Assembly: GCA_002778785.1 (NCBI GenBank)
Contig: PEZS01000010.1
Span: forward strand, 1-64,000
DNA from: Bdellovibrionales bacterium CG10_big_fil_rev_8_21_14_0_10_45_34
GTDB taxonomy: Bacteria > Bdellovibrionota > Bdellovibrionia > Bdellovibrionales > 1-14-0-10-45-34
Direction: 5' to 3'
Length of the DNA: 64,000 nt
The position numbers and the translations under genes were made by a program. Positions 43,106-47,226 of this stretch are shown here, piece by piece. The notes beneath the pieces are model-generated. The model saw only the letters and a list, made by a program, of their open reading frames with translations, was not told the DNA's origin and did not search any database. Positions within the stretch are counted from its first letter, which is position 1, and each line of letters starts with the position of its first letter.

Positions 43106-43867
43106 ATGGCGAATGCAAACAAGGATCAGAAGTCAGATCAGAAGTCAAAAAAAGGCACATGGACAGAAGGCTTTGGCTCACTTGTTTTAGCTGTAGGAAT
43201 TGCTCTTTTTATCAGGTGGCTCTTCGTTGAAGCCTACGTGATTCCATCTGGGAGCATGCTTCCCACTCTTCTCATTAGAGACCATATATTTGTGAATAAA
43301 CTCATTTACGGTATTCGCGTTCCGTTTTCAAAGACCTGGATTGCTGAATTCCGCGAGCCCACAAGGGGCGAGGTCATAGTATTTAGATTTCCTATCGAAG
43401 AGGGAACTTTCTTTATCAAACGGGTCGTGGGAGTGCCTGGCGACAGGGTAGAATACGAAGACGGCAAATTAGTTATTAATGGTGAAGAAGTCGAAGTACG
43501 GGCTCCATCTGACCCCGATGCTCTTGAGTGGGTTCGCGACAAAGATCTTCAGATCGGTACCAAAGACGACTTCGTTCACTTCGAAGAAGTTTTGGGTGAA
43601 CATCCACACTCAGTGTTGCTGCGACGGGGGCAATACCATCAAGGTACTGGCGGCGAAGTGGTCATCCCCGAAGACAAGCTTTTGGTTATGGGCGACAACC
43701 GCGACAATTCCAATGACAGCCGGGAGTGGGGCTTTGTGCCGACAGAGAATGTACTTGGGCGCGCAATGTTTGTCTGGTTAAGCTGCGAAGAAACACTTCC
43801 TGTGCTTTCGTTCTTATGCAACCCGTTGACTCTACGATGGAATCGCTTTTTCGACACAATCGAGTAA
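43106..43867 (+). CDS. lepB: signal peptidase I
   Basis: This cleaves signal peptides on the periplasmic face of the inner membrane. One N-terminal membrane segment (SLVLAVGIALFIRWLFV) precedes the catalytic Ser50 in VIPSGSMLPTLL and Lys105 in FFIKRVVGVPGDRV. The later box MGDNRDNSNDSREWGFV is complete. All catalytic features are intact, unlike the downstream paralogue. AGAAGG lies upstream of the ATG. Confidence 0.96.
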   Translation: MANANKDQKSDQKSKKGTWTEGFGSLVLAVGIALFIRWLFVEAYVIPSGSMLPTLLIRDHIFVNKLIYGIRVPFSKTWIAEFREPTRGEVIVFRFPIEEGTFFIKRVVGVPGDRVEYEDGKLVINGEEVEVRAPSDPDALEWVRDKDLQIGTKDDFVHFEEVLGEHPHSVLLRRGQYHQGTGGEVVIPEDKLLVMGDNRDNSNDSREWGFVPTENVLGRAMFVWLSCEETLPVLSFLCNPLTLRWNRFFDTIE

Positions 43868-43875
43868 ACTAAGCA

Positions 43876-44535
43876 ATGTGGCGCTATATTAAGGATCACT
43901 TAGAAACGGTACTCATTGCTATAATCTTAGCTTTCGGGGTTAGACAGTTCATACTGACTGTCTACAAAATGCCTTCCCCCACAATGTACCCAGCAGTAGA
44001 ACCTGGCGATTTCTTGTTTACTTACAAAATTCCCTATGGGCTTGAAGTTCCTTTTTTGGACCGAAAGATCGGAAGAAACAAAAAACCCTCAAGAGGCGAG
44101 GTGGTTGTCGTGCGCTCTCCGGATTCCAAAGATTCACTTTTTCTGAAGAGAATCATCGCGGTAGAGGGAGACCGTGTGGAACTGAGGGATGGCGCAGTCA
44201 TACTCAACAGCGAATCAATTGACGGGGGAGCTGATAGGGGATCTCTGTTTGGCCCCATTCGAAGTGAGGTGCCGCAAGAACACGGAGGCTACTCCGTAGT
44301 TATGCCAAAAGGGAGTTCTCTAGATAACTTAGAAGAGATGATTGTGCCCAAGGGTCACGTTTTTATTCTGAGTGATAACCGCACGATTTATGAAGATTCC
44401 AGAGACTGGGGACCTATTCCCCTCGATTGGATATCTGGTCGTGCGACTATTGTGTGGTTCTCTCTCGATTGGGAGAGAAAACAGTTTGGTTTGCCTGCGG
44501 TGCGGTGGGAAAGATTGTTCAAGCCGATTCATTGA
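43876..44535 (+). CDS. signal peptidase I paralogue with Ser-to-Thr active site
   Basis: A 219-residue S26-family protein starting eight bases after lepB. The fold is kept: an N-terminal membrane segment (VLIAIILAFGVRQFIL), Lys91 in LFLKRIIAVEGDRV, and SRDWGPI. The catalytic serine box PSGSM reads PSPTM, with Thr36 (codon ACA, 43981-43983) at the nucleophile position, and GDN reads SDN (166-168). It may be inactive and assist LepB, or use Thr on special substrates. Tandem duplication and divergence from lepB is the simplest origin. Confidence 0.88.
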   Translation: MWRYIKDHLETVLIAIILAFGVRQFILTVYKMPSPTMYPAVEPGDFLFTYKIPYGLEVPFLDRKIGRNKKPSRGEVVVVRSPDSKDSLFLKRIIAVEGDRVELRDGAVILNSESIDGGADRGSLFGPIRSEVPQEHGGYSVVMPKGSSLDNLEEMIVPKGHVFILSDNRTIYEDSRDWGPIPLDWISGRATIVWFSLDWERKQFGLPAVRWERLFKPIH

Positions 44536-44568: not shown

Positions 44569-45453
44569 ATGTCAGTCCCGCGCCGACTTCTCTCGGTCTC
44601 TGATCTTAACAATGCCGATGTTAATTGGATACTCGGAAGGGCACTGCGTTCTTTGAGTAGTGGAGGCAGTCACGCCAAGCATTCAGATAAAGTATTGTTA
44701 AATATATTTTTAGAATCCAGCACAAGAACGAAAGCCAGCTTCTCCCTAGCGGCTCAGAGAATGGGTATCCACGTCACTGAGATTTCAAAAAGCTACAGTA
44801 GTCTTGATAAGGGCGAGAGCGTCGAAGATACCCTATCTGTCTTGGCAGCGATGAAGCCCGATGTGATAACACTCCGCTGCTCTTCATCGGATCACCTCAA
44901 ATACTTGGCGTCGGTCGCAGAGTGTCCTGTCATCAATGCAGGAGACGGAACAAACGAGCATCCCACTCAAGCCCTCATTAATGCCTTTACGCTCTCTGAA
45001 GTGTTGACGCTGAGTGGAGCCAAAATCTTATTTGTCGGGGATTGTGCAAACAGTCGGGTTTTTAACTCCACATCGCTTCTCTGTGAGAAACTGGGAGCTC
45101 GCGCGGCTACACTTACATTTAAAGGTTTAGAACCGCTTACCGCAGGCTATGATGCGTTTTCTGATAAAAAGGAGGCCTTAGACTGGGCAGACGCAGTGAT
45201 AGGACTGAGAATCCAGCGGGAGAGAATGAGCGACGAATTTTCTATCAACCGCCAACAGATTGATGAGATTCAAATTACTTCGGACGATCTCGCTCAGTTT
45301 AAGAACCGACACTGGATTTTGCATCCAGGCCCGATTGGCTGGGGTGATGAGTTTGCAATAAGCATAAAAAGCTACCCGAAAAACCTTGTCTTAAAAATGG
45401 TCAATAGAGGTATACACATAAGGGTTGGGACTTTAGAATGGCTGCTTGAATAA
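44569..45453 (+). CDS. pyrB: aspartate carbamoyltransferase catalytic subunit
   Basis: This joins carbamoyl phosphate and aspartate, the committed pyrimidine step. Carbamoyl phosphate is bound by FLESSTRTKASF and INAGDGTNEHPTQALI. ATG 44569 gives 294 residues, near the family norm; an upstream TTG at 44545 has no better ribosome site. No pyrI regulatory chain is nearby. It is followed by carA, an unknown gene and carB, which supply its substrate. Confidence 0.96.
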   Translation: MSVPRRLLSVSDLNNADVNWILGRALRSLSSGGSHAKHSDKVLLNIFLESSTRTKASFSLAAQRMGIHVTEISKSYSSLDKGESVEDTLSVLAAMKPDVITLRCSSSDHLKYLASVAECPVINAGDGTNEHPTQALINAFTLSEVLTLSGAKILFVGDCANSRVFNSTSLLCEKLGARAATLTFKGLEPLTAGYDAFSDKKEALDWADAVIGLRIQRERMSDEFSINRQQIDEIQITSDDLAQFKNRHWILHPGPIGWGDEFAISIKSYPKNLVLKMVNRGIHIRVGTLEWLLE

Positions 45454-45478: not shown

Positions 45479-46555
45479 ATGGATAGAATACGAAGAAAAG
45501 GTTTTGTGGTGCTCGAAACCCGAGAGGTTTTCGAGGGCTATTGGGTAGGCGGAGCTGCTTCAGTCGGGGAGCTGGTCTTTAATACGAGCCACTCCGGCTA
45601 CGAGGAAATCGCTACAGACCCGTCGTACTTGAATCAGATAGTTGTGATGACGGCGCCGATGCAAGGCAACTATGGCGTCGTTCCAGAAACGCGCCAATCG
45701 GAAAACTTTCACATCAAAGGATTTGTCTGTTTAGATATTCAAAACTCCGACCGGGATCGTAGCTGGAGCGAAATTTTGACGAATCAATCCATAGCTGTAA
45801 TCGATGGCCTGGACACGCGAAGCTTGGTGCTTTACTTAAGGCAAAGAGGAACAACTTGGGGAGCTGCGCTCGATGCCGAGACTCAAGAAGAGGCGCTAAC
45901 TTTGGGTTTAGAACTAATTAGCAAGAATAAAGTCGTAGCTTCAGATTGGACTCGCCAGGTCTGCGTAAAAGAAGAGCTTCGCGTCGCGGGCTTGAAGCCG
46001 GCAGGTCCTACCATCGCGCTGCTCGATTTTGGATGCAAATCGAACATCTTAAACCTCGTGAAACAGCATAGTCGCGAAGTTTCTGTTTTTCCTTCTTGGA
46101 CCGATGCGGATCAACTAGTTCACTTCGACGGGGTAGTACTGAGCAATGGCCCAGGAGACCCGGCAGACGTCAAAAAGGGCGTTGAGACTGTAAAGTCTTT
46201 GCTGGGTAGACTTCCCATGTTCGGTATTTGTATGGGCCACCAGGTATTGGGTTTGGCGCTTGGGGCTAAAACTTTCAAGCTGAAATTTGGTCATCGCGGA
46301 GCCAATCACCCTATCGAAGACGAGATTCTCGGGCAGGTGTACGTTTCTAGTCAGAATCATGGCTACGCCATTGTTGAAGAAACTCTTCCCAAAGATGTGA
46401 TCGTTACTCACCGAAATCTTAACGATAAAACTGTCGCGGGAATCGCATGCAAAGCATTGAACTGCATGAGTGTTCAGTTTCATCCTGAAAGTTCGCCTGG
46501 TCCGAACGAGGCTAGAGCGCTTTTTAATTATTTTTTCGAAAGAATGCTGAAATGA
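45479..46555 (+). CDS. carA: carbamoyl-phosphate synthase small subunit
   Basis: The glutamine amidotransferase subunit hydrolyses glutamine and channels ammonia to CarB. The class I triad is visible: Cys in MFGICMGHQVLGLALG, His and Glu in SVQFHPESSPGPNEA. The N-terminal CPSase domain begins KGFVVLETREVFEGYWVG with FNTSHSGYEEI. Length 358. It overlaps the next gene by four bases (ATGA). Confidence 0.97.
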   Translation: MDRIRRKGFVVLETREVFEGYWVGGAASVGELVFNTSHSGYEEIATDPSYLNQIVVMTAPMQGNYGVVPETRQSENFHIKGFVCLDIQNSDRDRSWSEILTNQSIAVIDGLDTRSLVLYLRQRGTTWGAALDAETQEEALTLGLELISKNKVVASDWTRQVCVKEELRVAGLKPAGPTIALLDFGCKSNILNLVKQHSREVSVFPSWTDADQLVHFDGVVLSNGPGDPADVKKGVETVKSLLGRLPMFGICMGHQVLGLALGAKTFKLKFGHRGANHPIEDEILGQVYVSSQNHGYAIVEETLPKDVIVTHRNLNDKTVAGIACKALNCMSVQFHPESSPGPNEARALFNYFFERMLK

Positions 46556-47226
46556 CGACTGATTTGGAGCAACCAAGCCTCTATGACCCATTGATTGAAA
46601 GAATGATGCAGTATTTTACTTCAGAGAAATTTGACAGTGAAGTGAGGCAGGCGAAAAAGGAATTTTTTGAGCAATCAGGTTTAGTGGATGACCACTCGGG
46701 ACTTTTTGATTTGCGAATGGCTCAGTTTCTAGATTGGTTTTTGTTTTCTCGCGAGTTGAATGACTATCACCTCACTCCCAGTCACTTGGTCGTTCAGGCT
46801 CCTTTGGAGAGTTTTGAAATTTCTGAATCAGAAAGACCCCTATTTGAAAACCTGGCAAAAACTCGACATAGCCTGTTTGAGTTTATCAAGATTAAGGGTA
46901 GAGAAGTTACGTGCAGAGACCTTTTCAAACGTGAAAAGATCACGCTGAAAAATTCCGTAGTCAGTGCAGGTTTTACCGTAGACGAAATATTCGAAGCGCG
47001 AATTGTTCCTTACGAGGACACTTATGTGTTCGCAAGAGGTTTTTGTTTTCACCCCGTGGAGGCCACGAAGTTTATTTTGAAAGAAATAAAAAAGGTGATT
47101 CATTTGGATGAGAATCAAAAAGAACTTTTGATGTTTCGACTTCTAAAGATGAGGTACCGCTACGAACAGTATAAGCATATTCGAATTGAGTATCTTTATA
47201 CGAACGAATCGAAACTTAAGATTTAG
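46552..47226 (+). CDS. unknown protein encoded between carA and carB
   Basis: A 224-residue soluble protein, translationally coupled to carA (ATGA overlap) and ending eight bases before carB. It has no signal peptide or membrane segment. The N-terminal half is helical with [27 protein letters not shown], and a middle beta-like part ([47 protein letters not shown]) resembles an OB- or SH3-like strand pattern. No family is recognised and no catalytic motif stands out. The position suggests an accessory or regulatory protein for carbamoyl-phosphate synthase, or only a shared transcript. Confidence 0.8.

What the first reader, a model, noticed from the sequence alone, without database searches (positions are those of the whole stretch)
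43876..44535. Tandem signal peptidase paralogue with Thr at the nucleophile position
PSGSM is PSPTM and GDN is SDN, while the catalytic Lys is retained. It starts eight bases after a fully normal lepB, so the pair is co-expressed. It could be a non-catalytic partner, a regulator of LepB, or a Thr-nucleophile peptidase with a narrow substrate range.
Basis: partly seen in the sequence, partly recalled or inferred. Interest (0 to 1): 0.55.

Follow-up and report, generated by a model that had tools for sequence, protein, structure and literature searches.

The report
Signal peptidase sister without catalytic serine
Beside its normal signal peptidase (the enzyme that trims exported proteins) this bacterium keeps a sister protein whose cutting residue is gone, and the same sister gene has lost that residue repeatedly in related bacteria while the rest of the protein stayed conserved, which suggests it does a job that does not need cutting.

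Summary
In detail: window 43876-44535 encodes a 219-residue S26 protein with Thr36 at the nucleophile position and Lys91 at the general-base position, 8 bases after a canonical lepB. Thr is not a conserved feature. The gene belongs to an old orthologous group ("clade C", lepB3), the last copy in a cluster lepA - lepB1 - (lepB2) - lepB3 - pyrB. Of 94 clade-C genes from the class, 66 keep Ser; 28 have something else (Ala 10, Thr 7, others 11), which needs 10 changes on the best tree made without the active-site columns (7 forced by well-supported branches). LepB1 lost Ser in 3 of 93 rows, LepB2 in 0 of 90. Scaffold residues stay as conserved in nucleophile-less proteins as in Ser-bearing ones. 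Pairs that both lack Ser keep 45-60% identity although silent sites are heavily diverged, so selection acts without the serine. The window protein also has Gly272Ser and Ser278Tyr (E. coli numbering), expected to disturb the lysine. Best reading: a non-catalytic signal-peptidase homologue that works by binding, probably preproteins or LepB1, as proposed for Streptococcus SipA. A Thr-nucleophile enzyme is unlikely but not excluded. No biochemical evidence exists here.

The parts
43876..44535 (+). lepB3 (clade C): S26 signal peptidase homologue with Thr at the nucleophile position, 219 aa
43106..43867 (+). lepB1 (clade A): canonical type I signal peptidase, Ser and Lys present; the only intact PF10502 gene found in the genome
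43981..43983 (+). Thr36 codon ACA, at E. coli Ser90
43978..43980 (+). Pro35 codon, at the Gly of PSGSM
44146..44148 (+). Lys91 codon, at E. coli Lys145 (retained)
44371..44373 (+). Ser166 codon, at E. coli Gly272; a side chain here is said to clash with Lys145
   Evidence: passage of PMC4049620
44389..44391 (+). Tyr172 codon, at E. coli Ser278, said to stabilise Lys145
   Evidence: passage of PMC4049620
41150..42949 (+). lepA, upstream neighbour (start codon chosen by eye); a lepA match lies within 2.5 kb upstream of clade A in 71 of 72 genes tested
44569..45453 (+). pyrB-type carbamoyltransferase, downstream neighbour (start codon chosen by eye); a match lies within 2.5 kb downstream of clade C in 87 of 91 genes tested

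Best explanation
The gene is the window's copy of an old, cluster-encoded signal peptidase paralogue (lepB3) of its order (Bdellovibrionales, by recall) and of at least one sister order. In this lineage it has most likely lost signal-peptidase catalysis: the nucleophile is Thr, the Gly next to the lysine is Ser, and the Ser that steadies the lysine is Tyr. It keeps the N-terminal helix and the whole signal peptidase fold, and most likely works by binding. I infer that it sits on the periplasmic face of the membrane and holds signal peptides, preproteins or LepB1 itself, so as to tune or aid LepB1, the only intact signal peptidase I found in the genome. Shown by sequence: orthology, gene linkage, repeated loss of the serine, scaffold conservation, selection on the protein. 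Inferred: absence of activity, and the binding role. Not known: the partner.
For: Clade C is apart from LepB1 and LepB2 (FastTree support 97; 100/98). In every locus that holds C and another copy, C is last and on the same strand; pyrB lies within 2.5 kb downstream in 87 of 91 genes and lepA upstream of A in 71 of 72. Ser90 is lost in 28 of 94 clade-C genes: 10 changes on the best tree of 91 clade-C rows without the catalytic columns, 9-11 in bootstraps, 7 forced by well-supported branches. It is lost in 3 of 93 A and 0 of 90 B rows. With tree lengths and C's rate, 6.8 losses would be expected in B and 0 are seen (p about 0.001; for A p 0.10, rough). Among 65 C rows Ser90 loss goes with departures at Gly272, Ser88, Asn274, Lys145, Pro87 and Ser278 (Fisher p 0.002 to 0.03, uncorrected for relatedness and for testing 8 sites), not at Asp280 or Arg282 (p 0.58, 0.64). 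In 26 nucleophile-less rows R23, M37, P39, G44, D45, R92, G98, D99, N111, D167, D174, S175, R176, W178, G179, S196, R213 are 96-100% conserved, against 91-100% in 65 Ser rows; besides position 36, which defines the split, only 166 (Gly272) falls from at least 85% to under 65%. Five pairs in which both lack Ser keep 45-60% identity while third codon positions differ at 63-66% and second positions at 21-32%. The model has the full fold (pLDDT 80.6), Z 15.4 to E. coli LepB and 14.7 to non-catalytic SipA.
Against: Lys is retained and Ser to Thr is a conservative change. ACA is one base from the Ser codon TCA, so a sequence error there cannot be excluded; the other active-site changes make that less worrying. 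The window row sits on a long branch (1.25 and 1.51 changes per column). Most orthologues keep Ser, and losses are concentrated in family f4 (17 of 21 rows) while f9 keeps Ser in 43 of 48, so the group's ancestral function probably included cleavage. Clade C evolves faster than A in all seven genome pairs where both were compared and faster than B in six of eight, so relaxed constraint plays a part. In 10 genomes at least 300 bases separate C from the copy before it, so co-transcription is not general. No C was found in 8 of 106 fetched genomes (G003, G024, G059, G072, G074, G094, G096, G109), so the role is dispensable in some lineages; G034 is undecided because its contig ends right after B. 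Nothing here shows binding or a partner.
Confidence: 0.6

Rival explanations
1. A working Thr-Lys signal peptidase with a narrow substrate range.
For: Lys91 is retained, and so is Ser34 at the Ser88 position. Thr appears in 7 of 94 orthologues; the five carriers on the drawn tree stand in four places. Three Thr carriers (L023, L052, L151) have canonical Lys145, Gly272 and Ser278.
Against: Ala carriers are at least as intact (6 of 10) and keep Lys in 10 of 10. The window protein has Ser at Gly272 and Tyr at Ser278. The rows grouped with it, L060, L066 and L094, have Ala, Ser and Ser. A search for S90T with signal peptidase found no paper, which tells little.
Confidence: 0.12
2. A gene on its way out: relaxed constraint on a redundant paralogue, with no present function.
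For: Clade C evolves fast, was not found in 8 of 106 fetched genomes, and is shortened in L153 and L154. Losses at the nucleophile go with other active-site changes.
Against: Five pairs without Ser keep 45-60% identity while silent sites are heavily diverged. Scaffold residues stay 96-100% conserved. All 21 clade-C proteins of family f4, 17 of them without Ser, keep two Cys. The window reading frame is intact.
Confidence: 0.2
3. An active peptidase using another nucleophile, for example the Cys next to the lysine in family f4.
For: Cys two residues before Lys145 is invariant in 21 of 21 f4 clade-C proteins, 17 without Ser.
Against: A second Cys (window-equivalent position 81) is equally invariant, 21 of 21, and the pair is found in no other A, B or C row, which points to a disulfide. 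The window protein has Ser81 and Phe89, so this cannot apply to it.
Confidence: 0.04

Closest known systems
SipA of Streptococcus pyogenes (PMC4049620; abstract, outline and passages seen)
   Same: Signal peptidase fold without the catalytic pair; Gly272 and Ser278 replaced as well; homologues with an intact pair are said to exist in other streptococci; our model matches it at Z 14.7.
   Different: SipA has Asp and Gly for Ser and Lys, lies in a pilus cluster and is needed for pilin polymerisation. The window gene keeps Lys and lies between lepB and pyrB.
SpsA of Staphylococcus (PMC12445088; two passages seen)
   Same: Inactive, dispensable signal peptidase homologue beside an essential active one (SpsB).
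   Different: Lacks two catalytic residues, whereas the window protein keeps Lys. The passages do not give the location of spsA; I recall spsA and spsB as adjacent, not checked.
E. coli LepB and the window's own LepB1
   Same: Fold, N-terminal membrane anchor, Lys and most box residues.
   Different: LepB is an active Ser-Lys enzyme; the window protein lacks the serine, Gly272 and Ser278.
Multiple signal peptidases of Bacillus (SipS/T/U/V/W; passage of PMC12445088)
   Same: Several paralogues in one genome with some division of labour.
   Different: Those are described as peptidases; clade C loses the catalytic serine repeatedly.

Membership tests
Active type I signal peptidase (LepB) | Peptidase_S26 profile and fold | tested here: met
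   Pfam 2.1e-34; Z 15.4 to 3s04
Active type I signal peptidase (LepB) | Serine nucleophile in box B | tested here: not met
   Thr36
Active type I signal peptidase (LepB) | Lysine general base | tested here: met
   Lys91
Active type I signal peptidase (LepB) | Gly272 and Ser278 around the lysine | tested here: not met
   Ser166 and Tyr172
Active type I signal peptidase (LepB) | Cleavage of preproteins | not testable with these tools
   needs an assay
SipA/SpsA kind of inactive homologue (both catalytic residues missing) | Fold kept, serine missing | tested here: met
SipA/SpsA kind of inactive homologue (both catalytic residues missing) | Lysine missing as well | tested here: not met
   Lys91 retained, so it is not filed as this kind; it may still work like it
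SipA proper (pilus assembly factor) | Gene in a pilus cluster | tested here: not met
   nearest neighbours lepA, lepB1, pyrB-type gene
lepB3 / clade C (group defined here) | Groups with other last-in-cluster copies, apart from lepB1 and lepB2 | tested here: met
lepB3 / clade C (group defined here) | Last in the lepB tandem, before pyrB | tested here: met

The most novel reading that the evidence does not exclude
These bacteria have a heteromeric signal peptidase: LepB1 (or LepB2) catalyses and LepB3 is a dedicated non-catalytic subunit that selects or presents preproteins. Its own active site is no longer needed and has therefore worn away in many lineages, a bacterial counterpart of the multi-subunit eukaryotic signal peptidase complex.
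Probability: 0.3. Interest if true: 0.75.

Novelty: new variant of a known kind. Interest (0 to 1): 0.5.

Why it matters
Bacterial signal peptidase I is usually treated as a single-subunit enzyme (recalled). An orthologous group that sits beside the active enzyme, keeps its fold and loses its catalytic serine repeatedly (10 changes of state on the best tree) gives a natural experiment on what a signal peptidase can do without cutting. It is testable in Bdellovibrio, where the third copy still has Ser: if Ser-to-Ala there is harmless but deletion is not, the binding role is primary. It also warns that a signal peptidase annotation alone does not show activity.

Tried and rejected
Thr as a conserved feature: rejected, 7 of 94. 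New Cys nucleophile: rejected for the window and unlikely for family f4, because two Cys are conserved together. RNA features: no Rfam match at the gathering score and no tRNA in the window. Named close relatives: the genome-contig scan gave 9 loci from other groups; 8 of the 9 entered the FastTree and none fell in clades A-C, the ninth (L039) was too short. Papers, judged by the titles and abstract starts listed: Bdellovibrio with signal peptidase and lepB (1 paper), paralog (8) or essential (8) showed none on this tandem; pseudoprotease with signal peptidase, 15 of 29 listed, none on a bacterial S26 protein by title; LepB1 with LepB2, 2 papers, on plants and Corynebacterium; S90T, none. Searches listed 25 of 108, 15 of 23 and 10 of 34 papers and led to PMC4049620 and PMC12445088.

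Rows dropped: 248 ORF matches gave 219 distinct proteins, of which 8 near-duplicates were removed and 2 more as too short. One clade-C row (G013) was among the near-duplicates and G038 and G041 have only fragments of C, so these are not in the 94. L153, L074 and L154 (shortened or very divergent) were left out of the last tree and of the conservation count, 3 of 94. The 29 later clade-C rows, including the three of the sister order, were assigned by best clade profile, not on a drawn tree. Box E is aligned unreliably in a few rows (L065, L074, L081, L154).

Full report
What is there. The ORF at 43876-44535 (+) encodes 219 residues with an N-terminal helix (residues 2-26 in the model) and the Peptidase_S26 domain. 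Against E. coli LepB chains, Thr36 lies on Ser90, Lys91 on Lys145, Ser166 on Gly272 and Tyr172 on Ser278 (residue numbers and roles from passages of PMC4049620). The upstream gene 43106-43867 is a canonical lepB with these residues, and 8 bases separate the two. The PF10502 profile finds only these two genes in the genome, so LepB1 is the only intact signal peptidase I found.

Orthologues. A search with the window protein found some S26 match in 94 of 98 genomes of the order, and one with a clade-C alignment in 133 of 143 genomes of the class; these counts include LepB1 and LepB2. I fetched regions and sorted 209 S26 proteins by FastTree: clade A (first lepB, 67 rows), B (second, 65 rows), C (last, 65 rows), and 12 outside rows. 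The window gene is in C. In every locus holding C and another copy, C comes last on the same strand. The gap before C is usually under about 140 bases or an overlap, but in 10 genomes it is 300 to 7,300 bases. A pyrB match lies within 2.5 kb downstream of C in 87 of 91 genes and a lepA match within 2.5 kb upstream of A in 71 of 72. Clade-C rows come from all ten family codes of the order (f1 to f10) and from f11 of a sister order. The three f11 genomes have an A-C pair with Ser in C. So the pair is probably older than the order, and the ancestral C most likely had Ser.

The nucleophile is lost repeatedly in C. With 29 further C genes there are 94: Ser 66, Ala 10, Thr 7, Ile 2, Asn 2, Leu 2, and one each of Val, Gly, Met, His, Arg. 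Lys145 is changed in 10, and the pair is broken in 31 of 94. On a tree of 91 C rows and 5 outgroup rows without the active-site columns, the Ser state needs 10 changes, 9 to 11 in bootstraps, 7 forced by well-supported branches. An earlier tree with 65 C rows gave 9, 9 to 10, and 6. In contrast A lost Ser in 3 of 93 rows, which group together, and B in 0 of 90. Per tree length (9 changes in 47.5 units for C; 35.9 units for B; 20.4 for A) a simple Poisson comparison gives p about 0.001 for B and 0.10 for A, so the contrast with A is not significant. Losses are uneven: 17 of 21 rows in family f4, 5 of 48 in f9.

It is not mere decay. Among 26 rows without Ser the scaffold residues are as conserved as among 65 rows with Ser; apart from position 36, which defines the two sets, only position 166 (Gly272) falls from at least 85% to under 65%, while Lys91 goes from 97% to 81%. 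Five pairs in which both lack Ser (L045/L055, L045/L059, L055/L059, L027/L056, L026/L052) have 45-60% identity, with 63-66% of third codon positions different against 21-32% of second positions. This is not a formal dN/dS, since silent sites are near saturation. In the same genome pairs A is more conserved than C (seven of seven comparisons) and B in six of eight. In family f4 all 21 clade-C proteins carry two Cys (window-equivalent positions 81 and 89), a pair that no A, B or other C row has. The positions lie at the two sides of a hairpin in the window model (strands 76-80 and 88-95), so a disulfide is likely; 17 of those 21 lack Ser.

Is Thr an alternative nucleophile? Thr carriers have Lys145, Gly272 and Ser278 all canonical in 3 of 7 cases, Ala carriers in 6 of 10, carriers of other residues in 2 of 11, Ser carriers in 55 of 66. 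Numbers are small, but Thr carriers resemble Ala carriers more than Ser carriers. The window protein has Ser at Gly272, where according to the SipA paper any side chain would clash with the lysine, and Tyr at Ser278, said to stabilise the lysine (passages of PMC4049620). I take it as inactive, at about 80%, with no assay.

Structure. AlphaFold2 with an 11-row alignment gives pLDDT 80.6 and pTM 0.75. The model aligns to E. coli LepB 3s04 at Z 15.4 (157 residues, rmsd 3.1) and to SipA 4n31 at Z 14.7 (136 residues, rmsd 3.5), which count as tied. The fold is intact; residues 118-148 are not modelled with confidence. Coordinates of the active site were not examined.

How it likely works. Inactive signal peptidase homologues are known: SipA is needed for pilus assembly and keeps the peptide-binding cleft (abstract and passages of PMC4049620), and SpsA is an inactive companion of SpsB (passages of PMC12445088). 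By analogy LepB3 would bind preproteins or LepB1. That step is inference. A heteromeric LepB1-LepB3 enzyme is the boldest reading compatible with the data.

Limits. Fisher tests ignore relatedness and multiple testing, and two of the eight sites (Asp280, Arg282) show no association. Parsimony counts changes, not direction; Ser in A, B and the f11 rows makes loss the likely direction, but regains are not excluded. No C was found in 8 of 106 fetched genomes. Literature coverage is open-access only, so finding no paper on this tandem is weak evidence of novelty.

Noticed in passing
L070:2051-3091 and L095:2058-3098 (+), and L096 (minus strand): In three family-f4 genomes (G049, G072, G096) the first lepB has Gly for the catalytic Ser (Arg for Lys in two of them), while the second copy is canonical: the roles of pseudoenzyme and enzyme seem swapped.
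   Followed up: partly
clade-C proteins of family f4, for example L022:1438-2169, window-equivalent positions 81 and 89: Two Cys invariant in 21 of 21 and absent as a pair from every other A, B or C row examined; probably a hairpin disulfide next to the lysine.
   Followed up: partly
window 46552-47226: 224-residue ORF between the carA-like and carB-like genes with no Pfam match at E 0.001.
   Followed up: no
L153:2584-3018 (+) and L154 (minus strand): Shortened clade-C copies (open frames of 145 and 193 aa), possibly late stages of loss.
   Followed up: no
G074:C65:15693-16394 (L168): A canonical second copy (clade B by profile, PSGSM) lies about 5 kb from the first lepB instead of next to it, and no clade-C copy was found.
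   Followed up: partly
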